From: Gemmataceae bacterium
GTDB lineage: Bacteria; Planctomycetota; Planctomycetia; Gemmatales; Gemmataceae
Length of the DNA stretch: 64,000 nucleotides
Assembly: GCA_901538445.1 (NCBI GenBank)
Contig: LR594584.1
Coordinates: forward strand, 4,371,006-4,435,005
Direction of reading: 5' to 3'
The translations under genes were made by a program, and so were the position numbers. Below the pieces are notes generated by a model, which was given only the letters and a program-made list of their open reading frames with translations, was not told the DNA's origin and did not search any database. Shown here in pieces: positions 22,147 to 64,000 of the stretch (positions are counted from its first letter, which is position 1; every line of letters begins with the position of its first letter).

Positions 22147-22181
22147 ACAAGACCCGGGCGCCCGCTGTCCTCCGACCCACA

Positions 22182-45752: not shown

Positions 45753-45776
45753 GTGCGGTCCGAGCAGAAGACAGAG

Positions 45777-45887
45777 TGATCCGCAGATTACGCAGAGGGG
45801 CACAGATTTGAAGACAGAACAGGTTCGATCCGAACTCTGCTGCGTCTGGTATTTCAATCTGTGTCCATCTGCGTAGCCTGCGGATCA
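45777..45887. repeat. Palindrome of the ACGCAGA/CACAGATTT family
   Basis: Imperfect inverted repeat of about 32 nt (45777-45809 with 45856-45887), reading TGATCCGCAGATTACGCAGA from the left and its near-complement on the right. It is the same family as 39812-39920. It lies between the oleD stop and the RNA ligase start. Confidence 0.82.
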
Positions 45888-46924: not shown

Positions 46925-48783
46925 GCAGGGGACTCCACGGGCACCTGCAGCTTCCAGTTCGGACCGAGCTTCTTATCCGCCCACACCGCCAACTTCTCGC
47001 GGAAAATCTTCGAGTTGTGCCGCACATCCACGGGGAATGTGTCGGGGTGAATGAGGAACGTCGTGATCTGCTCTGTGTGGAAGGTCGCCCCGGCCCGCAG
47101 GCGAAGGCACTCTTCGATCACTTCGCGAGTGAGACCCTTAGATTTCGGATACGGCCAGTTCGGTTTCTCGACACATAGAACCGGGTACGTAATGCCACTC
47201 CGGGTCACTCCGACGAGAGCCGTTCGACCGATGTACTTCCCGAAGTTGAACACAGGCTCCACCATGTCGGTGAACAACGTGCCGTGCGGGGTGACGACGC
47301 GGTGCGACTTGCGGCCGCAGAACCACAGGCGGCCGGTGTCGTCGATGTAGCCGACGTCGCCCATGCGGTGCAGCACCTCGCCCGTTCGCGGATCGCGGAT
47401 CTTTGCAATCGCCGTCGCCTCGGGCCGGTTGAAGTAGCGGCGTGTCACCACCGGCCCGCGGACGACGAACTCGCCGATCTCGCCGGGCGGCAACTTCAGA
47501 GCGTCGGACCACTCCGCGATCGGCTCGTCGGAGATCGCGATGACGCTGACCTCCATCCCCGGCACCGGCCGACCGACGCACACGCCCTTGCCCTGGTCGG
47601 TGAGGTGCCGCGTCTCGGCGAGGATCTCGCGGCTGCCGATGTTTGCCACCGGTAGCGCTTCGGTCGCGCCGTACGGAGTGAACACCTGCGCCGACTCGGG
47701 GAGCAGCCTCACGAACCGCTCCAGCGACGCGGCCGACGCCGGCGCACCGGCCGAGATCACACGGCGGAGCTTGGCGAGTTGCACCGCAGGGTTCTTGCCC
47801 TCTCCCCTTGCGGGAGAGGGTGGCGGCGCTTCGCCGCCGGGTGAGGGGTGAGCGATAGCACGGGGTGTTGCTTCACCCCTCACCCGGCCGCTCGAAGACT
47901 CGCGGCCACCCTCTCCCGCAAGGGGAGAGGGCGAAGACGCCCAGTCACCGAGGCGCCGGATCACCGCGGGCGAGCCGAACATGTTCGTCACGCCGAACTG
48001 CCGGATCTGCGCCACGGCTTTTCGCGGGTCGATCTGTGCCGGCCGCGTCGGGTTCATGTCGGGGATCACGCACGTCATCCCGAGCGCCGGGCCGAACAGC
48101 GCGAACAGCGGGAACGTGCAGAGGTCGATCTCGCCCGGCTCGATGCCGTACACCGCCTTCAGCGCCTCGACCTGCGCCGCGAAGATGCCGTGCGTGTACT
48201 CGGCCCCCTTCGCCACGCCGGTGCTGCCGCTCGTGAACAGGATGGCCGCCGGCTCGTCCCGCGTCACGTCGGGAATGTGGTAAGGGCCGCGCGACTTGCC
48301 GTACCTCCGCAACCCGGCGAGCGAGCGGTCGCACAGGAACCGCCACCGGCCGACGTTCACCGTCGTGCGAAGCGTCTTCTTGCCCCACCGCAGGACGCGA
48401 CGCGCGGCGTGCGCCTTCGGGATGCCGACGAACGCCTCGGGCTCGGCGTCGGCGAGGCACCGGCCGAGGTTCTTCACGCCCATGCCGGGGTCGATGAGCA
48501 CCGGCACCGCGGCGACCTTGAACAGCGCAAACGTCAGCGCGAAGAAGTCCGGCGACGGCGGCACCATGAGCGCCGTGCGGGTGCCGCGGACGATGCCGGC
48601 GTCAACCAGACCGTGCGCGATCGCGTCGGCATCGGAGTTCAACTCGGCGAACGTGACCGAGAGGTGTTCCGACGCGCCCTCGGGCTTCACGCCGCGGCGC
48701 GGGAAGTGGACGGCGACCTGCGCCGGGTGGTCGGCCGCCATCCGGGCGAGGTGCGAGGCGACGTTGAGAGAGGCATCACGCAC
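46921..48783 (-). CDS. oleC: OleC-like beta-lactone synthetase (AMP-dependent ligase)
   Basis: 620 aa from GTG 48783. An adenylate-forming enzyme with the ATP loop LFTSGSTGVAKGAEYTHG, the core RRVISAGAPASAASLERF, TPYGATEALPVANIGSREI, and the hinge region YIDDTGRLWFCGRKSHRVVT. OleC converts 2-alkyl-3-hydroxy acids to beta-lactones. Residues about 284-329 (SPSPLAGEGGRESSSGRV...) are foreign to the family and come from an in-frame palindromic repeat at 47797-47932, placed just before the RRVISAGAP core. The enzyme without this insert would be about 575 aa, the usual OleC length. It ends in the ATGA overlap with oleD. Confidence 0.92.
   Translation of the reverse strand: MRDASLNVASHLARMAADHPAQVAVHFPRRGVKPEGASEHLSVTFAELNSDADAIAHGLVDAGIVRGTRTALMVPPSPDFFALTFALFKVAAVPVLIDPGMGVKNLGRCLADAEPEAFVGIPKAHAARRVLRWGKKTLRTTVNVGRWRFLCDRSLAGLRRYGKSRGPYHIPDVTRDEPAAILFTSGSTGVAKGAEYTHGIFAAQVEALKAVYGIEPGEIDLCTFPLFALFGPALGMTCVIPDMNPTRPAQIDPRKAVAQIRQFGVTNMFGSPAVIRRLGDWASSPSPLAGEGGRESSSGRVRGEATPRAIAHPSPGGEAPPPSPARGEGKNPAVQLAKLRRVISAGAPASAASLERFVRLLPESAQVFTPYGATEALPVANIGSREILAETRHLTDQGKGVCVGRPVPGMEVSVIAISDEPIAEWSDALKLPPGEIGEFVVRGPVVTRRYFNRPEATAIAKIRDPRTGEVLHRMGDVGYIDDTGRLWFCGRKSHRVVTPHGTLFTDMVEPVFNFGKYIGRTALVGVTRSGITYPVLCVEKPNWPYPKSKGLTREVIEECLRLRAGATFHTEQITTFLIHPDTFPVDVRHNSKIFREKLAVWADKKLGPNWKLQVPVESPA
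47797..47932. repeat. 133-bp palindromic element in frame inside oleC
   Basis: The outer arms 47797-47824 and 47905-47932 form a perfect 28-bp inverted repeat. An inner perfect 15-bp inverted repeat begins CCGGGTGAGGGGTGA. It is the same element as at 22014-22146 and 58571-58848. The reading frame of oleC runs through without a stop. Confidence 0.9.
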
Positions 48784-49088: not shown

Positions 49089-50063
49089 TCACCGAATCGG
49101 GTGCCTGGCGAGGAACTCGCGGACGAGCGGGATCACCTCGTCGCCGGCGTCTTCGAGCAGGTAGTGCCCGCAGTCGGGCCAGGTGCGGGTCTCAGCGTGC
49201 GGGAAGTACCGCTGCCAGTCGGCCAGGAAGTGCCGGTCGAACACGAAGTCGCGCATGCCCCACAGGAGCAGCGTCGGCACGTTCGCGAACTTCGACAGTG
49301 ACAGCGCGGTGTCGCGGACGATGTCGTACCCCGGGTCGCGCTCGCCCAGCGGGATCGTCTGCACGAACTTGAGCACCGCGACGCGGTGCTCGGGCGAGTC
49401 GTACGGCTTCAGGTACATCTGGCGCACGTCGACCGGGAGCGGCCTGCGGGTGACGCACCACTTCGCGGCGACGCGGCAAAAGGCGTTCTTCTGGAGGATG
49501 AGCCACGCGCCGAGCCGGGTGTTGCGGCCGAGCCACAGCGACCACGGGAACGGCTTCGACTTCGGCAGCGGGAACGCGCCGGTGTTCGTCGCGACGATCC
49601 GCTTCACGCGCTCGGGGTGCCGGGCCGCGAACGCCATCCCGATCATCCCGCCCCAGTCCTGCACCACGAGCGTGAGGTTCTCGCGCAGGCCGAGGTGGTC
49701 GAGCAGCGCTTCGAGGTCGTCGACCCGCGACTTCAGCGCATAGTCGTAGGCAGTGACCGGCGGCTTGTCGGAGAGCCCGCAGCCGATGTGGTCCGGCGCG
49801 ACGCAGCGGTGCGTGTCGCGCAGCGCGAGGACGAGGTTGCGGTAGTAGTAGCTCCACGTCGGGTTGCCGTGGACCATGACGATCGGGTCGCCCGAGCCCT
49901 GGTCGAGGTAACTCATCGCGCCGGCCGGCCGCGGGAAGCGGTGGGGCGTGAAGGGGTACGCGGCCGAATTCGGAGTTCGGAGTTCGGAGTTCGGAATCAC
50001 AGCGACGCCACGGTCCAAGGTTTCATTCCGCATTCCGCGTTCCGCACTCCGAATTGATGTCAC
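49089..50063 (-). CDS. oleB: OleB-like beta-lactone decarboxylase (haloalkane dehalogenase fold)
   Basis: Alpha/beta hydrolase of the haloalkane-dehalogenase subfamily: MVHGNPTWSYYYRNLV (oxyanion/halide-type loop), VVQDWGGMIGMAFAARHPER with the nucleophile Asp, and the late His in DCGHYLLED. OleB opens the OleC-made beta-lactone with loss of CO2 to give the cis-olefin. The family-like part begins at AYPFTPHRFPRPAGAMSYLD; the 35 or so residues before it are encoded by a palindrome. GTG 50063 overlaps the oleA stop (GTGA), the most likely start by coupling; ATG 50033 is an alternative inside the repeat. Confidence 0.88.
   Translation of the reverse strand: MTSIRSAERGMRNETLDRGVAVIPNSELRTPNSAAYPFTPHRFPRPAGAMSYLDQGSGDPIVMVHGNPTWSYYYRNLVLALRDTHRCVAPDHIGCGLSDKPPVTAYDYALKSRVDDLEALLDHLGLRENLTLVVQDWGGMIGMAFAARHPERVKRIVATNTGAFPLPKSKPFPWSLWLGRNTRLGAWLILQKNAFCRVAAKWCVTRRPLPVDVRQMYLKPYDSPEHRVAVLKFVQTIPLGERDPGYDIVRDTALSLSKFANVPTLLLWGMRDFVFDRHFLADWQRYFPHAETRTWPDCGHYLLEDAGDEVIPLVREFLARHPIR
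49967..50055. repeat. Palindrome at the oleA/oleB junction, read as the OleB N-terminus
   Basis: The 31-nt imperfect arms 49967-49997 (repeated TTCGGAG) and 50025-50055 (repeated ATTCCGC/ACTCCG) flank a 27-base centre. It starts four bases inside the oleA stop region and lies in frame with oleB. Confidence 0.8.
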
Positions 50064-51226
50064 CACTCGATCCCGAGCATGAGGCAGTTGAGCCCGCTAC
50101 CGATGCCGAGGAACCCGACGGTGTCGCCGGGCTTGAGGAACTCGCGCTCCTCGGCCAGCGCCGCGGTCAGCGGCAGCGACACCGTGCCCATGTTGCCGAG
50201 GAACTCGAACGTGCTGAAGGTCTTCTCGGCCGGGATGGCGAACGCCTTGAGCATTGCGGCCTGGTGCCCGGCCCCGACCTGGTGGCAGATCACCTTGTCG
50301 AGGTGGTCGTTCTGCCACGCGAACTTGGTGAGGAACTTCTTCCACGTCCGCAGGCCGACGTCCACGCCGTACTTGAGCACCTCGCCGGCGTGCGTCTCCA
50401 TGAACGGCACCATGACGTGCCGCAGGCCGAGGTCGATGCCCTTCTGGCCGAGGTCGATGCCCTTCTGGCCGAGGTCGATGCCCCGCTGGACGAGCGACTT
50501 CGCCTGGTGCCCGAACACCCGCTCGACCGCGCTCACGGCGGTCGGCATCAGCGACTTCACGCCCCACCGGCACAGCGAGTGGTGCTCGGGGGCGTTCTGC
50601 GTCACCCCGCCGAGCAGCTTCCGCCGCTTCTCGCGGGAGAACTCCTCGCCCACCACCAGCACCGCCACCGCCCCGGACCCGCCGGTGAGCGTGGCGATCG
50701 ACTCGCGGAAGAACTCGACCGACTTCGACCGCACCATCTGGTCGATGACGTTCTCGTTGATCTCGCGGGCCGTCTCGGCCGACACCACCAGCCCCGCACG
50801 GGCCTGCCCGAGTTCTATCCGGTTGGCGACCTCGACGATGCCGTTGAGGACGCCCAGGCAGGCGTTGCTCAGGTCGTAGATCGCGGCGTCCGGGTTGATC
50901 TTCAACTCGTGGGCGACGGCGCACGCGGTCGCCGGCTCGTACTGCTCGCGGCACACGCCGGCGTAGATGAGCACGTCCACGTCGGCGGGCGAGAAGTCGG
51001 CGGCGGCGAGCGCCTTCTTCGCGGCGGCCGCGGCCCCCTGCGACACCGGATATCCCGGCTCCCACCACCGCCGCTCGCTGATGCCCGTGAGCAACTCCAA
51101 CTGCCCCGGGCTCATGTTCAGCGCCTGGTACACCGGCGCGATGCGGGACTCGAGTTCGGAGGTCGAGACGACCACGGGGGCGAGTTCGTAGCCGATCGCT
51201 TCGAGGTGGACCCGGTTGTACTTCAT
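50060..51226 (-). CDS. oleA: OleA-like thiolase-superfamily acyl-CoA condensing enzyme
   Basis: 388 aa. Thiolase/KASIII fold with catalytic Cys123 in YDLSNACLGVLNGIVE, His in VICHQVGAGH, and Asn in GIGSGLNCLMLG. The early block SPGQLELLTGISERRWWEPG and ALAAADFSPADVDVLIYAGV is typical of OleA rather than FabH. OleA joins two fatty acyl-CoAs head to head to give a 2-alkyl-3-keto acid, the first step of long-chain olefin synthesis. Residues about 246-267 hold three copies of the heptad GIDLGQK. ATG 51226 is used. It lies just downstream of the PUFA-type synthase, separated by a small hairpin. Confidence 0.92.
   Translation of the reverse strand: MKYNRVHLEAIGYELAPVVVSTSELESRIAPVYQALNMSPGQLELLTGISERRWWEPGYPVSQGAAAAAKKALAAADFSPADVDVLIYAGVCREQYEPATACAVAHELKINPDAAIYDLSNACLGVLNGIVEVANRIELGQARAGLVVSAETAREINENVIDQMVRSKSVEFFRESIATLTGGSGAVAVLVVGEEFSREKRRKLLGGVTQNAPEHHSLCRWGVKSLMPTAVSAVERVFGHQAKSLVQRGIDLGQKGIDLGQKGIDLGLRHVMVPFMETHAGEVLKYGVDVGLRTWKKFLTKFAWQNDHLDKVICHQVGAGHQAAMLKAFAIPAEKTFSTFEFLGNMGTVSLPLTAALAEEREFLKPGDTVGFLGIGSGLNCLMLGIEW
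50425..50487. repeat. Three tandem 21-bp units inside oleA
   Basis: Units of GGCCGAGGTCGATGCCCTTC plus one base repeat at 50425, 50446 and 50467, the third with two changes. They encode a repeated seven-residue peptide and keep the frame. Confidence 0.9.
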
Positions 51227-51324: not shown

Positions 51325-54300
51325 CTACTCTAGCGTAAAGTCGGTCATCTGGTAGATGACGCGGCCGTCCACAGTCAAGAACCCGTTGGCGGTGATGCGC
51401 CGGCGGTCGTCGTCCACCGCGGTCACCTCCAGCACGACCGTCACTTCCCGGTCGGTCGGCAGCACCTGCCCGCGGTACACCCACGAGTGCGGCCGGTTCA
51501 CCCCGACCGTCTGGAACCCGTCCGGCGGCACGATCTGCCACCGCCGCCACGCGACGTACTTGAGCAGTTGGAGGAACGACTCCAGCCCCAGCGACCCGGG
51601 CCACACCGGGTCCTGGTAGAAGTGGGCCTTGAAGAACCAGAACCCCGGGTCAACGGTGATCTTGCCGACGATCAGCCCGAGCCCGGCGGCCCCGCCCTTG
51701 GGGAGGTACGCCTCGATCCGGTCCACCATGCGGAGCATCGCGCCCGGGAACGGCGCGGTACCGGGGAGGCGGTCGGTCTCGGCGTGCGCCAACTCGCTTT
51801 CTGTCGGGAACGGCACCTTCGCGTCGCGGATGCCGACCTGGTTCGCGAGCGCCGCCTTCGTGAAGAACCCGAAGTACGTCGTCCCCTCGTACACCACCCC
51901 GGCCGCGTCCCGCACCTTCATGTCGTAGTGCTGGATCACCATCCCCGCCGACCGCGACACGCTCGTCATCTTCACGTTCATCGTCAGCAGGCCGGTCCGC
52001 GGCGTGACCGCCCGGTGCTGCACGGCCTTGCCGCCGAGGTTGCGGAACGACAGGTCGTCCGGGCTGGTGAGGGCGGACCCGCAGTACGCCGCGAGCCACC
52101 CGCACGGCTGGAGGGCTATCTCCAACAGGACGGCGAACGGCATCCGCTCGCCGCGGTTCTCGCGGAAGTACCACGCGTCGGCCGGCACCCGGTACTCGGT
52201 CTCGCACGCGGCCCCGGCCTTCATCTCGAACGGCGCGCCGGTGACCTCCGTCACACAGTCGAGGAACTGGAACGGCGGGCCGGGGAGCCGGGCGATCACG
52301 CGGCCCGTCCCCTCATCGAACACCCTGTACGGCTCGCCGAACCCCTCCGACGGGTTGCCGTTCGAGTACGCGAGGATCTTCGCGCGGTCGTAGATGGGCG
52401 GCTTACGGCGCGCCTGGGGCGCGACCACCTTGGAGTCGCGGCGGCCGGACCAGCACCGCTCCAGCTTCTCACGGGTCAGCCCCGACATGCGGAGCGTCAT
52501 GTTCGTGATCTCAACGATCGGCTTGCCGTCGGCGTACATCAGCGCGTCGGCGATGCAGAACGGCGCGCCGGAGCCGTCGGCGTAGCCGAGTTCTTTCACC
52601 ATCACCTCGTAGGTCACGGTCTTCGTCGACGCGAGCACCTGCCCGCGGCACTTGAGCCGGCTGTCCACGCCCGGCACCGGCTCGCACACCACCTCGCCGG
52701 CCTCGCCGACCCACCCGGCCCGCATCAGCAGGACGCGCAGCGTGTGCAGGCAGCACTCGTACATGAGTGTGCCGGGCATCACCATGTCGTCCACGAAGTG
52801 GCAGGTGAGGAACCAGTCGTCGGGGTGGATGTCGAACTCGGCCCGCACGAACCCGATCCCAAACCGTCCCCCCGCGGGGTCGATCAGCGGCACGCGGTCC
52901 ACGAGCCGGAGCATGCCGCCCGGGAGCGTCGCCGGGGTGCGGAGCGGCAGGTGCGCGAACTCGGGGCCGAACGCGGTCGCGAGGTCGCCGGCCCTGAGCG
53001 CGTCCACCTGAGCGGCCGACAGCGAGCACTCGCGCTGCGGCACGAGGTCGCGCCAGTCGCCCGGCCGCTTGCCGGGGAGGCGCTTCTTGTCGAGCGCCGT
53101 CTGCACGATGCCCCTGCCGGCCGCGAGCGCCGCGGCGGTGAAGAACCCGGCCACCCCGTTCCGCATCCGGATGAACGGCTCGCCGTTGATGGTGCCGTCG
53201 AACCGGAACCGGAAGATCCACGAGTCGCCCTGCTTGACGAACTCGTCGATGTGGATGTCGTACACCACCGTTTCGCCGAGTTGCGGCAGCCCGCGCTGGA
53301 AGCTGACGACCGCGTCGAGGAGGCGGTACACGGCGAGCCCGCGGGTCTGGAAGTCGATGCCGAGGTAGCCCGAGAGGAACAGGTCGGCCTGCCCGGCCTC
53401 GACCGAGATGGCGGTCGGGATGCGGCCGGCTTCGAGGTACCACCGGTCGGCCCGAACGGCGTGCTCCGTGACCACGCGGCCGCGGGTCATCGACAGCGGC
53501 TCGCCCTCGATCAGCGGGATGCGGTCCACGAGTTGGAGCGGCCCGTCGGGGAGCCGCACGCGGGTGGGGAACGTGTCCACCTCGGCGAACCTCGGCCCGA
53601 GCGCGTCGGCGACCTTGCCCGCGGCGAAGGCGCAGCACTGCTCGTAAGTGAGCGCCCGCGGGACGCCGTCTCCGGTCGGCGGAACCGGGGCGCGTGGAGC
53701 GGGTGGGGGTGCCGCTGGCGCAACGGGCGCGAACGCAACGCGCCCCAGTTGCCCGGAGCGGGCGAGGGCCTCGGCGAGTTGCACCTGCATCTGCACGATG
53801 CGGCCGGCGGTCTCGATGAACCCACGGTTCACGCGGAGGAACGCCTCCTGCGCCTGCATCGCGAGCGTCTGCACGTTCGCGGCCGCCTCGGCGAGCCCCA
53901 CGGGTACGGGCCGCGCCGCGACCGGTGCGGGCAATGGAACCGACGCGGTCAGCGTCACCCGTTGCGACGCCGGGGCGTGATGGATGGTCGCCGCCGGCAG
54001 GTGGACCGCGACGGGCGGCGACGGCGGGGCCGCCGGGACCGCGTCGGGTGCCCGGAACCGCGTCGGCGGCGTGACCGCGAGCGGGTCGATGTCGGACCGG
54101 ACCGTCGGGTCGTAGATGGGCATCGGGGCCGGCGTCGAGACGAACACCGGCTGCGGGGTGGGCACGATGATCGGCGTCGGCATCGGCGTCGAGATCGTGC
54201 TCGGGTCCAGATCGGGCGGCACCGGCGGCGGGGGCGGGACCGCGGCCCACGCGCCGCCGACCGGGACGACGAGTTCCTTGCGCGCGAGGGCCGCGGGGTC

Positions 54301-57300
54301 CTGGTGCCCGGCGCAGAGCGACTCCTGACCGTACAGCGCCCCGAGGTTCACCGGGAACCGCTCGGCGGCGAGGTGCGCGACGAGCCGCAGCACCTGCGAC
54401 GCGGCGTCCTGCCGGGCGGCGTGGGCGGCCCGCGCGAGGTGCGGGCGGTCGCCCAGGACCGCGTCGATCATCCGCACGCACGAGTTCCCCGGCCCGACCT
54501 CGACGAACGCCCGCACCCCGTCGCGGTACGCCGCGTTCACGACCGCGGGCACGTCGATGGTGGCGAGCAGCCCCGCGGTGATCGAGTCGGCGCACGCCCT
54601 CTCGGTCGGCTTGTACGCCCGGCCCCAGGCCCCACTGTAAATGGCGACGCCGGCCGGCGGGGTGACCGGCAGCGTGTGCAGCTCGCGGTACGGGATCTCG
54701 ACGGTGCGGCCGGCCTCGCAGTGCGCCAGCGTGACGCCCCGGAGCGCGGTCACCGACTTGCCGAGGACGACCGCGAGCTTCTCGACGTCGGCCCGCACCC
54801 CCCCGATCACGCACTCGGCGGGCGTGTTGACGATGAGCAGGTACGCCCGGAGCCCGGGGCGGAGCACCGCGAGCACGTCGTCGGCCGGCACCCCCACAAC
54901 GCCGATCACCCAGTCCACGTCCTCGTCGGCCGGCACGGCCCAGTACCGGCGGGCCGCGTCGTAGGGCGGCGCGAGGTCCGACGCGAACAGCGTGGACTGC
55001 TGCATCCGCCGGAACATCAGGTCGCGGCCCTGCCACGCCCGGACCCCGAACAGCCCGGCCGATTCGCCCAGGCTCAGGCCGACCATCGCGTCGCACCGCA
55101 CGCCCAGTGACGCCACGATGTCGCTCACGAGCGAACCGACCGTGACCTGCCCGAACATCAGCTCGCGGGCCGGGGCCTCCAGCGCCCGGCCGGTCCAGAA
55201 GTGGTCCGGCGCGAACTGACTGCGGAGGCACTCGTTCTCGGCCTGCTGGCGGCGGAGCGCCGCGGGCCACTGCGCGGAGAGGTCGCGGCCCATGCCGTCG
55301 AACTGGTTCCCGGACCCGGGGAACACGAGCGCGACCTTCCCCTTCGGGCCGAGCGGCTGCGGGGCGTAGAACACGCGGTCCCGGAGCGCCGGCTTCGCGG
55401 TCGCGGGGAACGGCGCGTCCGGGTCCGCGGCCAGGGCCTCGCGGGCGAACGCGAGCTGCTCGTGCAGCTCGCCCGTCGAGCGGGCGACGAGGGCGACCGC
55501 GAGCGGCCGGACCCGGTTCGGGGGCGACTCGCGGAACCACTCGCGGGCCACCGCCTCGACGTTCCGCGGGGGCCGGGGCGGCCCGGTCATGGTCAGCGGC
55601 GTGTCGAGCGAGGAGCGGGCGACGGCGGCCGGCGACGCCTCCGGGGCGACCCGCGCCACGAAATCGGCGAGGCGGGCCAGGCCCGCGGCGAGCGCCGGCG
55701 GCGTGTCGCCGTCCACGACGAACACCCCCTCGTTCCGCGCGCCGAGCGGCTGCGCGTACTCGGGGCCGGTTGCGAGGTCGGCCGGCTTCTTCGCGTGCTC
55801 TTCGAGCAGGATGGCGAAGTGGGTGCCGTCGGCCCCGGACGCCGTCACGAGCGCCCGCCGCGGCTTCTCGTCGCGGTCCCGCAGCCAGTACCGGGCCGGG
55901 GCGGTGAGGATCTCCTGGTTGAGCGCGACGCACGCTTTGGCCAGCGACGCCGCGGCCGTCGCCGCGCCGGCCTCGCCCACGTCGCGGGCCGCGTCGAACC
56001 GGACCGCGGTGTCGAACGGCTCGCCGGCGTCGCGCTCGGCGCGGGCGCGGGCCGCCTTCGCATCGGCCGCGACGCCGACCCCGCGGACCACCGCATACAC
56101 GCGGTCCCCGTCCCGCTTCGCGTCGTCGAGCCGCTTCAGCACGAACGCGGCCGCGCCCTCGCCGGGGCTCTTCACCTTCCCGGGGAGCACCGTGCGCGGG
56201 TCGCACGCGAGGTCCACGCCGCCGACGATCGCCCGGTCGAGTTCGCCGCACTGGAGGGCGCGGACGCCGAGTTCCAGCGCCCGCGCCGCCGAGCCCTCCT
56301 CGCTGCACACGGTGTGGCTCGGGCCGCCGACGTGGAACGTCCGCGCGATCCGGCTCGCGGCGATGCTCCCGAGTGCGCCCATCACGCGGTTCGCGGACAG
56401 CGGCGGCGACGCGGCGGCCGGCGAGCCCTCGGGGTTCGACAGCGCCGCCCACCGGAGGTGGTAGTTCGTGGTGTTCGGGTCGAGCCCGAGGCCGACGAAC
56501 ACGCCGGTCGTCGGCGCGTCGCCGGCGTTGAGCTTTACCCCGGTGCGGCAGTCGTCCAGAGCCGCGGCCGCGACCTGGAGCATGAGCAACTGCTGCGGCA
56601 GCGTCTCCTCGAGTTCCTTCGGCGGGATGCGGAACCGGTCGATCGGCACGGCCAGCGACTCGATGCCGAACCCGGGCGGCGACACGGCGCTCGCGAGCCG
56701 CCACCCGTTGAGCTTGGGCACCTGCTGTGGTGCGTCGCCCGACAGGGCGCGCTCCTGGAACGCCCGCAGGGTGTCCGACGGGCCGAAGTGCGCGCCGATG
56801 CCGACGACGGCCACCGGCACCGCCGCGGCCGGTTGCCCCGGCGGCTTCCACTTCGCTTCGTGGACCCGCAGGGCCTTCGGGGCGACCGCGAACTGCTTCG
56901 GCTTCGGGGCCGGCGCGCCGGTCCACTCCTCGACGAGCAGGTGCGCGTTCACGCCGCCGAAGCCGAACCCGCTGACCGCCGCGCGGCGCGGGTCGCCGCC
57001 GGCGCGCCGCTCCCACTTCTCGGCGTTGCCGAGGACGCGGAACGGGCCGCCCTTGTACTTCAGGCCGGCCGCCGGGGTGCCGAAGTTCGCCTGCGGCGGG
57101 AGCGTCTCGTTCTTGATCGCGAGCAGCACCTTCGCGAGCGCCGCGGCCCCGGCCCCGGTGAGCAGGTGCCCGACGGTGGACTTCACCGAGCCGATCGTGC
57201 ACTGCCCGGCCTTCCAGCCGGTGTCGCCCCACAACTCCCGGAGGCTGTCGAACTCGATGGCGTCGCCGACGGGCGTGCCGGTCGCGTGGCACTCGATGAG

Positions 57301-58236
57301 GTCGGCGTGCGTCGGGTCCCACTCGGCCGTCTCGTACGCCCGCCGCATCGCCCGGAGTTGCCCCTCCTTGGCCGGCGCGAGGAGGTTGCCGTGCATGTCG
57401 TTCGACAGGCCGACGCCGGCGATCGTCGCGAGGATTGTGTCGCCGTGCTTGAGCGCGTCGCTCAGCCGCTTCAGCACGAAGACGCCCGCCCCCTCGCCGA
57501 CCATGAGGCCGTCGGCCCCGGCATCGAACGGGCGGCACCGGCCGCCGGCCGACAGCGCCCGGAGCTGCGCGAACCCCATCTGCGTGTACTGGCAGTCGGG
57601 CCGCGAGCACCCGCCGGCGAGCATCGCGTCGGCCCGGCCGGCCATGAGTTCGTCCGCCGCGAGCTTGATCGCGTACAGCGACGACGCGCACGCCGCGTCG
57701 AGGGTGTAGCTGCCGAGACCGAGCCGCAGGCCGCGGGCGAGCAGCCCGGCGGGCAGCCCGGCGACGTACCGGTTCAGCGGGTGCGTCGCGGCCCCCGGCG
57801 GGAGCCCGACCTTCGGGCCGAGGACCTCGCGGCACAGGTCCGACGAGCCGTCGGTCGGCAGGCAGATGTTGCCGAGGACGACGCCGACGCGGGACCGGTC
57901 GAGCTTCTCGGTGCGGGCGTCGCGGAACGCGCGGTTGCCGACGTCGAGCACGAGCTGGAACAGCGGGTCGAGCTGGCCGACGAGCGCGAGGTCGAGGTCG
58001 AGGTCCGCGAGGTCGGGCGCGAACGGGTCGAGGTAGTACCCGCGGGTGGAGTACACCGCGTCGGGGTGCGGCACCCGCGGGTCGGTGCAGCGGCCGGCCG
58101 GGAGCACCCACCGGTCGGCGGGCACCTCGCGGGAGCAGTCCTCCGCCGCGGCGACGCCGGCCCAGAACCGGCCGAGGTCGGCCCCGCTCCCCGGGAACCG
58201 GCCCGCGACGGACACGATGGCAATGCGGTCAGTCAT
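51325..58236 (-). CDS. Polyunsaturated-fatty-acid-type synthase, KS-CLF-AT-DH array
   Basis: 2303 aa. KS domain at residues 3-440 (active Cys near 182 in DAACASSLYAIK; ECHATGT; GHLLTGAGAAA; GFGFGGVNAHLLVEE). A second KS-like domain of chain-length-factor type spans about 470-810 and lacks the standard Cys context (SHTVCSEEGSAA). An acyltransferase follows at about 965-1305 (FPGSGNQFDG; GLSLGES near 1054). After a Pro/Ala linker come four hot-dog DH/FabA-like repeats (about 1530-2300) with HFVDDMVMPGTLMYECCLH and HFYQDPVWPGSLGLESFLQ. This is the PfaC layout (KS-CLF-DH-DH) with an AT inserted after the CLF as in PUFA synthase subunit B; the usual ER is missing. It would extend and dehydrate an acyl chain carried on the ACP of the neighbouring subunit. 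Confidence 0.92.
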   Translation of the reverse strand: MTDRIAIVSVAGRFPGSGADLGRFWAGVAAAEDCSREVPADRWVLPAGRCTDPRVPHPDAVYSTRGYYLDPFAPDLADLDLDLALVGQLDPLFQLVLDVGNRAFRDARTEKLDRSRVGVVLGNICLPTDGSSDLCREVLGPKVGLPPGAATHPLNRYVAGLPAGLLARGLRLGLGSYTLDAACASSLYAIKLAADELMAGRADAMLAGGCSRPDCQYTQMGFAQLRALSAGGRCRPFDAGADGLMVGEGAGVFVLKRLSDALKHGDTILATIAGVGLSNDMHGNLLAPAKEGQLRAMRRAYETAEWDPTHADLIECHATGTPVGDAIEFDSLRELWGDTGWKAGQCTIGSVKSTVGHLLTGAGAAALAKVLLAIKNETLPPQANFGTPAAGLKYKGGPFRVLGNAEKWERRAGGDPRRAAVSGFGFGGVNAHLLVEEWTGAPAPKPKQFAVAPKALRVHEAKWKPPGQPAAAVPVAVVGIGAHFGPSDTLRAFQERALSGDAPQQVPKLNGWRLASAVSPPGFGIESLAVPIDRFRIPPKELEETLPQQLLMLQVAAAALDDCRTGVKLNAGDAPTTGVFVGLGLDPNTTNYHLRWAALSNPEGSPAAASPPLSANRVMGALGSIAASRIARTFHVGGPSHTVCSEEGSAARALELGVRALQCGELDRAIVGGVDLACDPRTVLPGKVKSPGEGAAAFVLKRLDDAKRDGDRVYAVVRGVGVAADAKAARARAERDAGEPFDTAVRFDAARDVGEAGAATAAASLAKACVALNQEILTAPARYWLRDRDEKPRRALVTASGADGTHFAILLEEHAKKPADLATGPEYAQPLGARNEGVFVVDGDTPPALAAGLARLADFVARVAPEASPAAVARSSLDTPLTMTGPPRPPRNVEAVAREWFRESPPNRVRPLAVALVARSTGELHEQLAFAREALAADPDAPFPATAKPALRDRVFYAPQPLGPKGKVALVFPGSGNQFDGMGRDLSAQWPAALRRQQAENECLRSQFAPDHFWTGRALEAPARELMFGQVTVGSLVSDIVASLGVRCDAMVGLSLGESAGLFGVRAWQGRDLMFRRMQQSTLFASDLAPPYDAARRYWAVPADEDVDWVIGVVGVPADDVLAVLRPGLRAYLLIVNTPAECVIGGVRADVEKLAVVLGKSVTALRGVTLAHCEAGRTVEIPYRELHTLPVTPPAGVAIYSGAWGRAYKPTERACADSITAGLLATIDVPAVVNAAYRDGVRAFVEVGPGNSCVRMIDAVLGDRPHLARAAHAARQDAASQVLRLVAHLAAERFPVNLGALYGQESLCAGHQDPAALARKELVVPVGGAWAAVPPPPPVPPDLDPSTISTPMPTPIIVPTPQPVFVSTPAPMPIYDPTVRSDIDPLAVTPPTRFRAPDAVPAAPPSPPVAVHLPAATIHHAPASQRVTLTASVPLPAPVAARPVPVGLAEAAANVQTLAMQAQEAFLRVNRGFIETAGRIVQMQVQLAEALARSGQLGRVAFAPVAPAAPPPAPRAPVPPTGDGVPRALTYEQCCAFAAGKVADALGPRFAEVDTFPTRVRLPDGPLQLVDRIPLIEGEPLSMTRGRVVTEHAVRADRWYLEAGRIPTAISVEAGQADLFLSGYLGIDFQTRGLAVYRLLDAVVSFQRGLPQLGETVVYDIHIDEFVKQGDSWIFRFRFDGTINGEPFIRMRNGVAGFFTAAALAAGRGIVQTALDKKRLPGKRPGDWRDLVPQRECSLSAAQVDALRAGDLATAFGPEFAHLPLRTPATLPGGMLRLVDRVPLIDPAGGRFGIGFVRAEFDIHPDDWFLTCHFVDDMVMPGTLMYECCLHTLRVLLMRAGWVGEAGEVVCEPVPGVDSRLKCRGQVLASTKTVTYEVMVKELGYADGSGAPFCIADALMYADGKPIVEITNMTLRMSGLTREKLERCWSGRRDSKVVAPQARRKPPIYDRAKILAYSNGNPSEGFGEPYRVFDEGTGRVIARLPGPPFQFLDCVTEVTGAPFEMKAGAACETEYRVPADAWYFRENRGERMPFAVLLEIALQPCGWLAAYCGSALTSPDDLSFRNLGGKAVQHRAVTPRTGLLTMNVKMTSVSRSAGMVIQHYDMKVRDAAGVVYEGTTYFGFFTKAALANQVGIRDAKVPFPTESELAHAETDRLPGTAPFPGAMLRMVDRIEAYLPKGGAAGLGLIVGKITVDPGFWFFKAHFYQDPVWPGSLGLESFLQLLKYVAWRRWQIVPPDGFQTVGVNRPHSWVYRGQVLPTDREVTVVLEVTAVDDDRRRITANGFLTVDGRVIYQMTDFTLE

Positions 58237-58480: not shown

Positions 58481-58570
58481 TCCCTCAAACCACCTCGTCA
58501 CATCCGCTCTGCGGTGGGACGAGGGGTGATGGGCGACGCATCTTCGGGCGCCCCGCGACCTCTCGTCTTG

Positions 58571-58848
58571 CCCTCTCCGCTTGCGGGAGAGGGTGGCCGT
58601 GCTTCGCGGCGGGTGAGGGGTACGGCCCCATCGCGCTCAAGATAAGACCGGGGGCCCCCCTGGGACCGCGGGCGTCCCGCCCGCTCTGTGGTGTTCCCAA
58701 GCAGCGGGCGGGACGCCCGCGGTCCCAGGGTGCGACTGGTCCCCCCTAACTTGAGTGCTATGGGGGTACGGCCCCCGCACCTCATCAGGTTCTACCCCTC
58801 ACCCGCCGCTCGAAGACTCGCGGCACCCTCTCCCGCTAAGGGAGAGGG
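58571..58848. repeat. Third copy of the ~133-bp palindromic element, split by an insertion
   Basis: The outer arms 58571-58593 and 58826-58848 match those at 22014-22146 and 47797-47932. The inner part is interrupted by 146 bp (58630-58775); subtracting it leaves 132 bp, the size of the intact copies. It lies in the 650-bp gap between the two synthase genes. Confidence 0.82.
58630..58765. mobile_element. MITE-like inverted-repeat insertion
   Basis: About 136 bp. A perfect 28-bp inverted repeat (58658-58685 with 58703-58730) forms the centre. The outer ends, ATCGCGCTCAAGATA and the reverse of TAACTTGAGTGCTAT, are near-matched terminal repeats. A 10-bp direct repeat GTACGGCCCC flanks it (58620-58629 and 58766-58775), as a target duplication would. 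No coding sequence is inside, so mobility would need a transposase elsewhere. Confidence 0.6.
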
Positions 58849-58886
58849 GAAAAACTCCCGCGCCGCTCGCCGCACGCGATCCGGTG

Positions 58887-61800
58887 TCACGCCCGCGCGA
58901 GCTGGTTCTTGCGGAACGCCTCGTTGAGCGTCTTCTCCATGACGCACTCGTAGTCCTGCATCTGGGCGATCACGCGGCCGTCGGCGTCGAGGTAGTCGAT
59001 GTCGGCGCGGGCGAACGTGCCGTCGTCGCGGCGGACCCGGATGACCACCCGCACCGGGCCGGCCGGGAACGCCTTGCGGAACTGCCGGTACCGGCCCGCG
59101 AAGCACGGGAGCGACGCCACGTCGTGCCGGGCCTGCGTCCACAGGATCATCATCTGGAAGCTCGCGTCGAGCACCAGCGGCTCCGCGATCCACGACGACC
59201 GGAGCGGCGACAGGAACCAGTCGGCCGGGGTCGGGGCGGTGCCCGCGGTGCCGATGAACGCCGCGTCGGCCACGCCCTCGATCCGCTCGATGCCGCGGAG
59301 CGCCTGCCCGTGGAACAGCATCTCCCGGTACGCCTGGGCGACCGAGAACCCGACCGGCTGCACCGGGGGCGGGGCGTCGGCCGGCGGGGCGGCCGGCAGC
59401 GCGGCGGTCAGCACGATCTCGGCCCGCGAGTGGATCACGTCGCGGCCGTCCCGCTTCTTGCCCCGGAGCTGGACCGGCACCACCAGTGTCTTGTCCTGCT
59501 TCACCGCCTTGCCGGCGAACGCCCGGAGCGCGGCCGTTTGGCCCAGGTCGAGTTGCACCCCGCTGGTCACCCGCAGGTCGTTGAACCCGTGGAACTGCAT
59601 GCCGGGGTTCCCGTGGATCGCGGCGTGCGCGAGCCACTCCAGGTGCATTGCCATCGGGAGCACGGCCCGGCCGTCGATCACGTGGGCCTTCAGGATCGGG
59701 TGGGTGACCGCGTCCACGGTCCGCTCGAACGCGAGGGCCATCTCCTGCGGGGACGACCCGCTCGACACGCCCGGCCCGCCGCGGCCCGGGGTCGGGGCCG
59801 AGACGAGCGGCGGCAGCGAGATCACGCCCGAACTCCCCGGGGCCGCCGACCGGCCCAGCGCGACCACCTCGACCGCCTTACCGGCGCTGAGTTCCTGCAC
59901 CAGGAACACGGCCCCTTCGAGCAGCGGGACCAGGCCGACGCCCTCGGACTCGAACACCTTGCGGAGGCCGGGCGTGACCATGCCGCCCTCCCACGGCCCC
60001 CAGTTGATCGCCACGACGCGGCAGTTCGGCCGGCGGCGCGACTCGACCTGGGCCGTCTTGTTCAGCACCTCGTTGGCGACGGCGTAGGCCGCCTGCCCGA
60101 CGCGGCCGAGCCGGGCGGTGGTGGAGCTGAACAGCACCAGCGCCTTGAGGTCGTCGCCCCCGACCGCGGCGAGGACGTTCCGCAGCCCGTCCACCTTGGT
60201 GGCGTAGACCCGGTCGAACTGCTCGGGGGCGAGGTCGTCGATCCGCTTGTCGGCCAGCACCCCGGCCCCGTGGACCACGACGGAGACCGGCCCGAACTCG
60301 GCCCGGACCCGGTCGAGCAGCCCGGCGACCGCGGCGGCGTCGGTGACGTTGACGGGGTAGTAGGCGACCTTCGCGCCGGTCTGGGCGACGCGGTGCAGCG
60401 TCTCGCGGACCTCGCGGGCCGCGGTCAGCTTCGCGTAGAACTCGCCGACCGCCCGCGGCCCGCCCTCGGCCCCGGCGAACGCCGCGATCGCCCGCTTCAG
60501 GTCGGCCTCCTCGGTGAGCCCGACGGCCCACTCGGGCTCCGGGCCGGGCGTCGGGGTGCGGCCGGTGAGGACGAGCGTGGCCCCGTAGGTCTCGGCCAGC
60601 GACACCGCGACCTCGGCCGTCACGCCCCGGGCCCCGCCGGTGACCAGGATCACGTCCTTGCGGCCGAGCTTGATGAGCTGCCCGGCCGGCCGCCGGGCGG
60701 CGACCGCGAGGTCGAGCGAGCACCGGTGGGTCGCCGCGACCCCCACCTCGGTCGGGCCGAACAGCAGCGCCTCCTCGACGACCGCGGCGGCCCCCTGGGC
60801 GACCGACACCTCGGGCGACAGGTCGATGACCTTGCACGCCACCTCGGGCCACTCGTGCCGGGCCGTCTTGACCAGGCCGGCGAGCCCGCCCGCGGTCGGG
60901 TCGGCGTCGGGGGACAGGTTCGCGAGGCCGAACGCGCCGTCGAGCCGCGCGACCGCGACGAGCACGGCCGCCCCGGTGCCGGGCCGGGCCGAGTGCCGGA
61001 GCCGCGGGCCGGCCAGCTTCACCCACTCGAACGCCCGCCGGTTCAGCCCCGCGTCGGGGGACACCGGGGCGAGGAGCAGCAGGCCGACGAGCCGGTCGGG
61101 CCGCTCGGCCGGGAGCGGGTCGGCCCACGCGAAGGCGTGCGGGGCCAGGCCGCGGGCGGCGAGCCCGGCGGCCACCGTCTCGGTCAGCGCGTCGGGGTCG
61201 CCGACCACCCACACCTCGCCGCCGGCCGCGAGCGCCACGGCCTTCCGCGGGGCGGCCGGGTCCAGGTCCACCGGCTGGAGGATGCTCCGGTCGACGCGGT
61301 CGGCCCCGACGATCCCGATCGACTGCGGCACGTTGCGGGGCACCGGGTTCTTGGTCACGTCGGTCCGCTTCTTAGCCGCCGGGCCGGGATCGACCGGGTC
61401 GACCTTCACGGTGCGGAGCCGCTCGTCCTCGGCCAGGGTGGCCGGGGCCGGCTGCGGGGCCGCCGCGGGCATCGCGGCCATCTCCCGCGAGTCGGACAGC
61501 ACCGCCGCGCCGTTGGCGGGGCCGGCGATGAAGGTGGCGACGTCCTTGAGGGTGTGGAGGGTCCCGAGGTGCTCGGGCCGGACCACCGGCGCGTCCGGGA
61601 GCCGCTCCTGGAGCGCCGACAGGATCTCCACCCGCTTGATCGAGTCCACCCCCAGGTCCCCGTCCAGCGACAGCGACAGGTCCAGGCTCTCCACCGGGTA
61701 GCCGGTCTTTTCCGACACCACCGAAAGCAGCGTCGCGGCGATCCGGTCGTCGGCCTTCGGTTTCGGTGCGGGGGCCGGTTGGGGCGCGGGCTTCGGTGCA

Positions 61801-64000
61801 GGGGCCGGCGGGGGCGGTGCGACCGCGGCGGGCGGCTGCGCCTGGACCGGGGCCGGCGGGGGCGCGTACACCGGCGGGGGCGGGGCGTAAGCCGGCACCG
61901 GCGCGGGGGCCGGGGCGGGGAACGGCACCGGCACGGGCGCGCCGCCGAGCCCCGAGAGCAGCATCGCCTGCTGCTGCTCGACGAGCACCTGGAGGGTCCG
62001 CTGGGCGGCGTCCTGGGCGTCGAGGAACTGCTTGTGGAGCGCGGCCGTCTGCTCCTGCATCCGCTGGAGCGAGGCCAGGCTCTGCTGGGTCACCAGGAGC
62101 GCCTGCGCCAGCGCGTTCGGGTCGGCGTCGTTCATACCAGTCCCCCTGACGGCGAAGGTCGGGCGCGGAGCGTGAGTCGTGTGGGTCGGGGCGTGGGTCG
62201 TGGCGAGGGCGGCGAGCGGCGGGCGGGCGGCCCGCGGGGCGACGTAGTTGGCCCCGGTCAGGGGCACGGTCATCCCCGGCTTCGCGGCCCCCTGGCGCGG
62301 CGGGCGGCACCGGCTCCCGGCCTCCCAGGCCGCCAGTTCGACGTGGTGCCCGCGGGCCGCGAGCCGGGCGAGTGCCCGCCCCAGGTCGAGCACCCCGGGC
62401 TGCTTCCCCCCGGAGGCGTCCACCGCCACCGCGGCGACGCCCGGCGCCGCGGCCTCCTCGGCGGTCGCCTCGGCGAGCTTCGTCAGCACCGTGCCGGGGC
62501 CGACCTCGAGGAACGTCCGCACGCCGGCCGCGATCATGTTGCGGATTTGATCGGCGAACGCGACCGGCTTCGCCAGTTGCTCGGCGAGCAGCGTCCGGGC
62601 CTCGCGGGGGTCGGCCGGGTACGGCTCGGCCGTCGTGTTCGCGTACACCGGCACCGTGCCCCGGCCGAACTCGACGCCCTCCAGCGCGGCGAGGAACGGG
62701 GCGGCCGCGTCGGCGACGAGCGGGCTGTGGAACGCGGCCGCGACCGGGAGCCGGACCGACTTCATCCGGGCCGCGGCGAACGCCTGCTGGGCGCGGTCGA
62801 CCTCGGGCGTCGCCCCCGACACGACCGACTGCTTCGGCCCGTTCCGGTTGGCGACCACGACGTCGAGCTTGTGCTCGGCGATGACCCCCTCGATGGCGGC
62901 CAGCGGCGCGAGGACCGCGAGCATGGTGCCGGGGTCGCCGGGCCGCCGCTCGCCCATGAGCCGCCCGCGGAGCCGGGACAGGTGGAACAGGTCGGCCGGG
63001 GCGAACCGGTCGGCGGCGGCCAGGGCGACGAGTTCGCCGTAGCTGTGGCCCGCGAACGCCGTCGCCCGGACCCCGAACCGCTCGCACAGCACCCGCCACG
63101 CGCCGAAGCTCACCGCCCCCAGCGCCGGCTGGGCGTTGGCGGTGTCGCGGAGGTCCGCGTCGTGCCACTTGCGGGCCTCGGGGTCGAAGCGGGTGGGCGG
63201 GTAGATGCGGTCGGACAGCCGGCGGGTGTCGGTGTCGTCCTGGGCCTGGGCGGCGACGGCCCGGTCGGCCTCGGCCAGGCTGTCGAGCACCTCCGGGAAC
63301 AGGCACGCGAGGTCGCGGAGCATCCCGACCGCCTGCGACCCCTGCCCGGGGAACAGCACCGCGAGCGCCCCGGCCTCGGGGCCGCGGCCGTAGAACGCGC
63401 CCTCGGGGGTGTGCCACTCGGCCGCGTCCGGGTCGGCCAGGAGCCGGGCCTTCGCGCCGGCGACCAGCTTCGCCACGTCGGTGAGCGACCGGTGCGCCGC
63501 GAACGCGAGCCGGCACGGGGCCAGCGCGTCGAACGCCGAGCGGGACCGCTCCGCGAACCGGGCCAGGGCCGCCCAGTCGGTCCGCGCCGCCGGACCCTCG
63601 ACCGGCTGCGGCGACGGGTGGACCTTGGCCGCGAACCTGTCCAGTTCGGCGGCGAGTTGCTGCGGGGAGTCGGCGCCGAGCGCCACGATCTCGACCGAGC
63701 CGTCCCAGTCGAGGTCCGTCTTGGCCGGGGCGTACTCCTCCAGGACCGCGTGGAAGTTGCTCCCGCCGAACCCGAACGCGGACATCGCCGCGCGGCGCGG
63801 GTGCCCGGCCCGCGGGAGCCACGGCCGCATCACGGTGTTCACGTAGAACGGGGAGTCCGGGGCCGACAGCGGATCGACCGGCCGCTCGACCTTGATCGTC
63901 GGCGGGAGCACCTTGTAGTTGAGCGCCAGCGCCACCTTGATGAGCGACGCCGCCCCGGCGGCCGCCTTCGTGTGCCCGATCTGCGACTTCACGGACCCGA
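58887..64000 (-). CDS. Polyunsaturated-fatty-acid-type synthase, KS-MAT-ACP-KR-DH (5' end outside window)
   Basis: At least 1704 aa; the frame is open to the window edge. From the N-terminal side it has the C-terminal part of a KS (GSVKSQIGHTKAAAGAASLI; SAFGFGGSNFHAVLEEY, 63720-64000). A malonyl-CoA acyltransferase follows (PGQGSQAVGM; FAGHSYGELVALAA; about 62480-63400), then an Ala/Pro-rich linker. Next is a single ACP (LGVDSIKRVEIL, Ser near 61646), then a ketoreductase (VTGGARGVTAEVAVSL; LFSSTTARLGRVGQAAYAVA; 60000-60660). It ends with a polyketide-type DH (HPILKAHVIDGRAVLPMAMH; 58900-59720). This is the PfaA order KS-MAT-ACP-KR-DH but with only one ACP in place of the four to nine of EPA/DHA synthases. 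It is upstream of the other synthase gene, with a 650-bp repeat-filled gap between. Confidence 0.9.
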   Translation of the reverse strand, partial: GSVKSQIGHTKAAAGAASLIKVALALNYKVLPPTIKVERPVDPLSAPDSPFYVNTVMRPWLPRAGHPRRAAMSAFGFGGSNFHAVLEEYAPAKTDLDWDGSVEIVALGADSPQQLAAELDRFAAKVHPSPQPVEGPAARTDWAALARFAERSRSAFDALAPCRLAFAAHRSLTDVAKLVAGAKARLLADPDAAEWHTPEGAFYGRGPEAGALAVLFPGQGSQAVGMLRDLACLFPEVLDSLAEADRAVAAQAQDDTDTRRLSDRIYPPTRFDPEARKWHDADLRDTANAQPALGAVSFGAWRVLCERFGVRATAFAGHSYGELVALAAADRFAPADLFHLSRLRGRLMGERRPGDPGTMLAVLAPLAAIEGVIAEHKLDVVVANRNGPKQSVVSGATPEVDRAQQAFAAARMKSVRLPVAAAFHSPLVADAAAPFLAALEGVEFGRGTVPVYANTTAEPYPADPREARTLLAEQLAKPVAFADQIRNMIAAGVRTFLEVGPGTVLTKLAEATAEEAAAPGVAAVAVDASGGKQPGVLDLGRALARLAARGHHVELAAWEAGSRCRPPRQGAAKPGMTVPLTGANYVAPRAARPPLAALATTHAPTHTTHAPRPTFAVRGTGMNDADPNALAQALLVTQQSLASLQRMQEQTAALHKQFLDAQDAAQRTLQVLVEQQQAMLLSGLGGAPVPVPFPAPAPAPVPAYAPPPPVYAPPPAPVQAQPPAAVAPPPPAPAPKPAPQPAPAPKPKADDRIAATLLSVVSEKTGYPVESLDLSLSLDGDLGVDSIKRVEILSALQERLPDAPVVRPEHLGTLHTLKDVATFIAGPANGAAVLSDSREMAAMPAAAPQPAPATLAEDERLRTVKVDPVDPGPAAKKRTDVTKNPVPRNVPQSIGIVGADRVDRSILQPVDLDPAAPRKAVALAAGGEVWVVGDPDALTETVAAGLAARGLAPHAFAWADPLPAERPDRLVGLLLLAPVSPDAGLNRRAFEWVKLAGPRLRHSARPGTGAAVLVAVARLDGAFGLANLSPDADPTAGGLAGLVKTARHEWPEVACKVIDLSPEVSVAQGAAAVVEEALLFGPTEVGVAATHRCSLDLAVAARRPAGQLIKLGRKDVILVTGGARGVTAEVAVSLAETYGATLVLTGRTPTPGPEPEWAVGLTEEADLKRAIAAFAGAEGGPRAVGEFYAKLTAAREVRETLHRVAQTGAKVAYYPVNVTDAAAVAGLLDRVRAEFGPVSVVVHGAGVLADKRIDDLAPEQFDRVYATKVDGLRNVLAAVGGDDLKALVLFSSTTARLGRVGQAAYAVANEVLNKTAQVESRRRPNCRVVAINWGPWEGGMVTPGLRKVFESEGVGLVPLLEGAVFLVQELSAGKAVEVVALGRSAAPGSSGVISLPPLVSAPTPGRGGPGVSSGSSPQEMALAFERTVDAVTHPILKAHVIDGRAVLPMAMHLEWLAHAAIHGNPGMQFHGFNDLRVTSGVQLDLGQTAALRAFAGKAVKQDKTLVVPVQLRGKKRDGRDVIHSRAEIVLTAALPAAPPADAPPPVQPVGFSVAQAYREMLFHGQALRGIERIEGVADAAFIGTAGTAPTPADWFLSPLRSSWIAEPLVLDASFQMMILWTQARHDVASLPCFAGRYRQFRKAFPAGPVRVVIRVRRDDGTFARADIDYLDADGRVIAQMQDYECVMEKTLNEAFRKNQLARA

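What the first reader, a model, noticed from the sequence alone, without database searches (positions are those of the whole stretch)
51325..58236. Unusual synthase architecture: KS-CLF-AT followed by four hot-dog DH domains, no ER
The protein merges the AT of PfaB/subunit B with the KS-CLF-DH-DH of PfaC in one 2303-residue chain and shows two FabA-like pairs. No enoyl reductase is present in either synthase gene within the window. A missing or separate ER would favour highly unsaturated products, in keeping with a polyene hydrocarbon.
Basis: partly seen in the sequence, partly recalled or inferred. Interest (0 to 1): 0.6.

Follow-up and report, generated by a model that had tools for sequence, protein, structure and literature searches.

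The report
Fused PfaBC subunit of polyunsaturated-lipid synthase
This is one large subunit of a bacterial polyunsaturated-lipid synthase whose 'missing' enoyl reductase lies just past the edge of the window, next to genes that probably turn such chains into a long polyene hydrocarbon; the arrangement was described in 2011 and is common.

Summary
Catalytic residues are intact and conserved in relatives.
The lack of an enoyl reductase is a window-edge effect. A PfaD-type reductase (636 bits, over the family cut-off; 559 bits to a solved PfaD) lies at window-equivalent 65451-67091, 1.45 kb past the window, upstream of pfaA on the same strand. The gene run is pfaD-pfaA-pfaBC-oleA-oleB-oleC-oleD.
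The fusion is not unusual. Shulse and Allen (2011) describe pfaBC [KS-CLF-AT-DH2] in Types C and D and a pfaBC fusion in Type I, which includes Gemmata obscuriglobus, and suggest that Type I feeds olefin synthesis. 147 of 150 pattern-matched stretches in public genomes encode relatives. Of 41 genomes searched, 25 have the PfaBC dehydratase part, and these 25 have a PfaD match, 3 of them only fragments.
Most likely this is a complete PUFA-type synthase feeding OleABCD to make a C31-like polyene. It is a new member of a known kind.

The parts
51325..58236 (-). pfaBC gene: KS-CLF-AT-DH-DH subunit, 2303 aa
56893..58230 (-). KS domain, aa 3-448; C183, H317, H357
   Evidence: each catalytic residue in 58 of 58 sequences
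55777..56817 (-). chain-length factor, about aa 474-820; the KS Cys position is Glu here, and C644 lies beside it
   Evidence: KS against CLF halves of 30 of the 58 sequences: acid in 27, Ala in 3; limits approximate
54433..55344 (-). PfaB-type AT domain, about aa 965-1268; S1055 in GLSLG, H1172
   Evidence: TIGR02816 below cut-off; S and H in 56 of 58, the other 2 gapped
53119..53658 (-). hot-dog 1 (half of DH1 without the catalytic His), E1613
   Evidence: limits from the model
52477..53028 (-). hot-dog 2 (catalytic half of DH1), H1813
51859..52386 (-). hot-dog 3 (half of DH2 without the catalytic His), E2039
51328..51801 (-). hot-dog 4 (catalytic half of DH2), H2205
58887..64000 (-). pfaA gene (KS-MAT-ACP-KR-DH), cut by the window edge; full gene to window-equivalent 65234 (2115 aa, one ACP). 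pfaD (ER, 546 aa) lies beyond it at window-equivalent 65451-67091, same strand
   Evidence: TIGR02813 1242.5 bits, over cut-off, for the first 2079 aa
50060..51226 (-). oleA, 388 aa; C123, H315, N345
49089..50066 (-). oleB (alpha/beta hydrolase)
46921..48783 (-). oleC (AMP-ligase-like olefin beta-lactone synthetase)
   Evidence: NF006754 fatty acid CoA ligase family over cut-off; NF045786 olefin beta-lactone synthetase 649 bits, below its cut-off of 900
45929..46924 (-). oleD (2-alkyl-3-oxoalkanoate reductase-like)
   Evidence: NF042422, 442 bits, below its cut-off of 580

Best explanation
The gene is pfaBC, the fused second large subunit of a 'secondary lipid' (PUFA-type) synthase of the kind Shulse and Allen call Type I. 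PfaA (KS-MAT-ACP-KR-DH), PfaBC (KS-CLF-AT-DH-DH) and the separate PfaD enoyl reductase extend a chain iteratively on the ACP. The two FabA-like dehydratase/isomerase sites set cis double bonds in some cycles, and PfaD reduces the enoyl in others. OleA, encoded directly downstream, condenses two of the polyunsaturated chains head to head; OleD, OleC and OleB reduce, form the beta-lactone and decarboxylate it to a long polyene, probably near hentriacontanonaene (C31:9). Shown here: gene order, domains, conserved catalytic residues, presence of PfaD. Inferred: activity, chain length, number of double bonds, and transfer from the Pfa ACP to OleA.
For: Domains and residues. PfaD 1.45 kb beyond the window, 559 bits to solved PfaD 6lkc. 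PfaA over the TIGR02813 cut-off. OleA aligned with solved OleA 3fk5/3row (that these are OleA is recalled), with C, H and N in 54 of 54 rows. Linkage: OleA on the same strand in 35 of 39 loci with PfaBC from 40 regions that I chose in relatives, PfaD in 28 of the 33 with at least 8.5 kb upstream; among 45 genome-contig loci with at least 6.5 kb downstream, OleA 28, OleB 28, OleC 27, OleD 26, all four 22. Print: Type I suggested to feed olefins, and Geobacter bemidjiensis makes C31H46 (PMC3098273, section read); co-expression of pfaA-E and oleA from Shewanella pealeana in E. coli gives the 31:8 ketone (PMC6463001, passages incl. part of the abstract).
Against: No product is known for this genome. 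Ole linkage is not universal: 17 of 45 genome-contig loci show no OleA nearby, though 4 of these 17 (L051, L093, L101, L102) have OleB-D directly downstream; the synthase may serve other ends. OleB, OleC and OleD score below the olefin-named or best NCBIfam cut-offs. OleC carries a 50-aa repeat-derived insertion that could impair it. PfaA has one ACP where characterised marine Type A has 4-6. The AT has Leu where a Tyr was shown to matter in Moritella PfaB. 12 of 32 genome-contig loci with at least 9.5 kb upstream show no PfaA or PfaD there.
Confidence: 0.78

Rival explanations
1. The synthase really works without an enoyl reductase and makes an unusually unsaturated chain.
For: No ER domain in either large protein.
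Against: A full-length PfaD on the same strand directly upstream of pfaA; PfaD matches in the 25 of 41 searched genomes that have the PfaBC dehydratase part, 3 of them fragments.
Confidence: 0.02
2. The cluster makes a membrane polyunsaturated fatty acid (EPA/DHA-like) as its main product, and the ole genes are a side branch or act on ordinary fatty acids.
For: Same domain content as Type D, whose member Psychroflexus makes arachidonic acid and EPA; 17 of 45 fused-PfaBC loci show no OleA nearby.
Against: Gene order with ole genes in most of the chosen planctomycete loci (35 of 39 with OleA) and in 28 of 45 genome-contig loci (the two sets overlap); OleA drew on the Pfa synthase in a reconstituted Shewanella system.
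Confidence: 0.15
3. The pathway stops before the olefin (ketone or beta-lactone precursor) because the OleC insertion disables it.
For: 50-aa in-frame insertion in OleC from a genome-wide palindromic element.
Against: The frame is kept, both flanking OleC parts are conserved, and 6 of 38 relatives, all in planctomycete-labelled MAGs, also carry inserts at the same place, so it looks like a tolerated loop.
Confidence: 0.05

Closest known systems
Type I secondary lipid synthase (Shulse and Allen 2011), incl. Gemmata obscuriglobus and Geobacter
   Same: pfaBC fusion; suggested link to olefin synthesis
   Different: Membership by KS tree not tested (no named Type I sequence to hand); gene order and ACP number of the published members are in a figure I could not see
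Type C (Desulfatibacillum) and Type D (Psychroflexus) pfaBC [KS-CLF-AT-DH2]
   Same: same domain content in one fused pfaBC
   Different: Type D has a split pfaA with five ACPs and makes AA/EPA; Type C has pfaD at the 3' end
Myxobacterial Pfa3 (Aetherobacter, Minicystis)
   Same: KS-CLF-AT plus FabA-like DH and pseudo-DH' in one chain
   Different: carries an AGPAT domain; none was found here
Shewanella pfaABCDE + oleABCD
   Same: same enzyme set and OleA link
   Different: pfaB and pfaC separate; 4-6 ACPs

Membership tests
PUFA-type (Pfa) secondary lipid synthase | PfaA: KS-MAT-ACP-KR | tested here: met
   TIGR02813 1242.5 bits, cut-off 1010.1; MAT with GHSYG and one DSIKR ACP motif
PUFA-type (Pfa) secondary lipid synthase | PfaC: KS-CLF plus two FabA-like DH | tested here: met
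PUFA-type (Pfa) secondary lipid synthase | separate PfaD enoyl reductase | tested here: met
   outside the window
PUFA-type (Pfa) secondary lipid synthase | several tandem ACPs (called distinguishing in PMC3098273, whose authors did not exclude single-ACP clusters) | tested here: not met
   one ACP by HMM; 6 of 26 full-length relatives in genome contigs also have one
PUFA-type (Pfa) secondary lipid synthase | phosphopantetheinyl transferase | tested here: inconclusive
   two PF01648 matches elsewhere in the genome; which one serves Pfa is unknown
Type I of Shulse and Allen | pfaBC fusion | tested here: met
Type I of Shulse and Allen | PfaA KS groups with the Type I clade | not tested
   no named Type I KS sequence fetched
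oleABCD head-to-head hydrocarbon pathway | OleA thiolase with catalytic Cys, His, Asn (His and Asn roles recalled; Cys in PMC6463001) | tested here: met
   NF006720 460.6 bits, cut-off 285; C123, H315, N345 in 54 of 54 rows, one row (L006) being the window's own gene again
oleABCD head-to-head hydrocarbon pathway | OleC and OleD over the olefin-named NCBIfam cut-offs; OleB over its best model | tested here: not met
   OleC 649 of 900, OleD 442 of 580, OleB's best hit haloalkane dehalogenase 182 of 241. Gene order still supports them
oleABCD head-to-head hydrocarbon pathway | polyene or olefin product | not testable with these tools
   needs lipid chemistry

The most novel reading that the evidence does not exclude
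In this planctomycete group the synthase has become a dedicated polyene-hydrocarbon factory rather than a membrane-PUFA maker: short ACP array (one or two in the six full-length same-genus PfaA seen), a PfaBC acyltransferase with the eukaryotic-type Leu beside its nucleophile, and an OleA with a long extra loop that docks on the synthase. Against it: ACP number did not follow ole linkage in the larger set, and long OleA loops also occur in loci labelled otherwise (L060, L066, L068).
Probability: 0.1. Interest if true: 0.45.

Novelty: new member of a known kind. Interest (0 to 1): 0.15.

Why it matters
It settles an apparent oddity: the synthase has its full enzyme set and is of a published type. 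Its modest value is as a clean, conserved example (pfaD-pfaA-pfaBC-oleABCD in one run) for testing whether planctomycetes make C31-type polyene hydrocarbons, a role suggested in 2011. I saw no report of that product for this group in the listings (20 of 693 papers listed); subscription journals are mostly not held.

Tried and rejected
Missing ER: rejected by PfaD beyond the window.

CLF retaining an active Cys: C644 looks like a nucleophile, but the KS Cys falls on Glu in the window's CLF; over the KS and CLF halves of 30 of the 58 sequences that position is Glu or Asp in 27 and Ala in 3. At C644 itself 12 of 58 rows have Cys and 44 Ser.

Fewer ACPs in ole-linked clusters: suggested by 24 of the 26 genome-contig loci with full-length PfaA (2, L069 and L084, dropped for short downstream flank; 15 linked, 9 not; means 2.07 against 3.67, Mann-Whitney p 0.023). 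Not repeated in 31 planctomycete loci (28 linked, only 3 not; p 0.70), so dropped.

Rows dropped: of the 80 loci kept, 57 had a single-ORF full-length PfaBC and were used for residue counts; for the fold, 54 of these 57 plus the window (3 too short) were aligned. The 40 regions were my choice: 28 of the 52 genomes with a match and 12 of the 25, taken for a long match and room on the contig; one (L141) had no PfaBC match over 400 bits and was left out.

Literature: searches returned no paper; in the listings PMC3098273 is the only one I recognised as bearing on a planctomycete pfa/ole cluster. Passages were checked in PMC7064751 (no planctomycete hit) and PMC11837533 (PfaA-KS sequences assigned to Gemmata in compost; activity and product described as still open, the sentence being cut in the passage shown).

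Full report
Observation. The ORF 51325-58236 (-) encodes 2303 aa. Pfam finds an N-terminal KS, a second ketoacyl-synthase stretch (position not shown) and three FabA stretches; NCBIfam adds a PfaB-family AT stretch below its cut-off. The best solved relative by sequence is 6riw (recorded as ORF10; a PUFA-synthase KS-CLF by recall), aligned over aa 3-678. Residues 1527-2303 were modelled with 55 aligned sequences (mean pLDDT 91.4, pTM 0.57, so the units are well modelled but their mutual placement less so). I read the order of helices and strands as four hot-dog units; Foldseek's first hit is a chain of two FabA-like units and the next are single FabA chains.

Catalytic residues. In 58 sequences (57 of the 80 kept loci, plus the window) KS C183, H317 and H357 are invariant. 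AT S1055 and H1172 are present in the 56 that have the region. DH1 H1813 is in 58 of 58, and DH2 H2205 in the 55 that have the region. The other half of each DH has no histidine at that motif in the window protein but an invariant Glu: E1613 in 58 of 58, E2039 in the 56 that have the region (other histidines exist elsewhere in these halves). Alignment places H2205 at FabA's histidine and E2219 at its aspartate (residue roles in FabA recalled; alignment). I infer two double-hot-dog active sites, each with the histidine from one half and the acid from the other; I did not measure distances in the model. The CLF has Glu where the KS has its Cys.

Enoyl reductase. The window ends inside pfaA. The genome holds one PfaD-family match, 636.1 bits against a cut-off of 449.25, at C3:4436549-4437847 (-). 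Read through, the gene is 546 aa at window-equivalent 65451-67091, and pfaA is 2115 aa at 58887-65234. PfaD aligns with solved PfaD chains 6lkc (E 1e-166) and 4yx6 over aa 46 to about 530. Among 41 genomes (own plus 40 relatives), 25 have the PfaBC dehydratase part, and each of these 25 has a PfaD match, 3 of them (G007, G010, G030) only in pieces below the cut-off; two further genomes (G023, G039) have PfaD without that part. In this search the family also rang in 3 of 14 control genomes, one over the cut-off, so a PfaD match alone is not specific; the position beside pfaA is what counts. The absence was an edge effect.

Surroundings. Downstream on the same strand lie oleA (50060-51226), oleB, oleC and oleD. 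In genome contigs, 147 of 150 pattern-matched stretches encode a relative, of which the best 80 were kept, from many phyla by record title. Of 45 loci with full PfaBC and at least 6.5 kb downstream, OleA is present in 28, OleB 28, OleC 27, OleD 26, and all four in 22; of 32 with at least 9.5 kb upstream, PfaA and PfaD are each present in 20. In 40 regions chosen from relatives, 39 with PfaBC, OleA is on the same strand in 35, OleB in 33, and PfaD in 28 of the 33 with enough upstream sequence. Across the phylum, 52 of 294 sampled genomes (the window's own among them) match the dehydratase part at E 0.001, some only weakly.

ACP number. PfaA here has one ACP; full-length relatives have one to seven (6 with one, 7 with two, 7 with three, 3 with four, 1 with six, 2 with seven, of 26). 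PMC3098273 says that more ACPs raise throughput and that single-ACP clusters were not excluded.

What is in print. PMC3098273 (abstract, section 5 parts 1-2 of 3, section 10 and passages): pfaBC [KS-CLF-AT-DH2] in Types C and D; a pfaBC fusion in Type I, with Gemmata obscuriglobus as its planctomycete; Type I suggested to supply olefin precursors; Geobacter bemidjiensis makes C31H46. PMC8436480 (passages): myxobacterial Pfa3 has KS, CLF, AT, DH, DH' and AGPAT. PMC6463001 (passages): OleA takes chains from the Pfa synthase. [quoted passage not shown] a Tyr beside its Ser is conserved in bacterial PfaB and replaced by Leu in eukaryotic ones; Tyr-to-Leu lowered activity in Moritella PfaB. Here Leu occurs in the window and 9 planctomycete-labelled loci, Gln in 2, Tyr in 44, with 2 gapped. 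PMC13291983 (passages): pfaBC fusions also occur in hybrid lipid clusters.

Mechanism. Most likely an ordinary complete Pfa synthase whose chains go to OleA and end as a long polyene hydrocarbon. Gene content and residues are shown; activity and product are inferred. The unsaturation is expected from the two FabA-like dehydratase/isomerase sites (established knowledge of Pfa synthases), not from lack of a reductase.

Verdict. It is a new member of a known kind, of low interest.

Noticed in passing
window 47793-47937 (inside oleC, aa about 284-333): A palindromic element of about 145 bp is inserted in frame in oleC. The search with it returned 89 matches in the genome, many being both strands of one place, with 40 of 231 candidates scored. 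In the window there is a further near-full copy at 22014-22155 and partial copies at 58566-58621 and 58794-58859. 32 of 38 relatives have at most 8 aa at this place; 6 have inserts of 11-48 aa, one (L027) of the same kind.
   Followed up: partly
window 50060-51226, OleA aa 228-283: OleA has a 56-aa loop with a seven-residue tandem repeat (GQKGIDL) where 19 of 53 compared ORFs have 14-15 aa; the planctomycete loci nearest to the window have 39-66 aa, and L060, L066 and L068 have 55-68 aa too.
   Followed up: partly
window-equivalent 58887-65234: PfaA has a single ACP, low for the family.
   Followed up: yes
L047, L051, L093, L101, L102: In these loci fused PfaBC is followed by OleB-OleC-OleD with no OleA hit in the locus; where their OleA lies was not looked for.
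   Followed up: no
window 44475-45857 (-): ORF beside oleD with a weak RNA_ligase match (PF09414, 23.7 bits, below cut-off 27).
   Followed up: no
L030: A contig labelled Bacteroidales MAG carries the whole cluster at 57% PfaBC identity, closer than several planctomycete-labelled loci; mis-binning or transfer.
   Followed up: no
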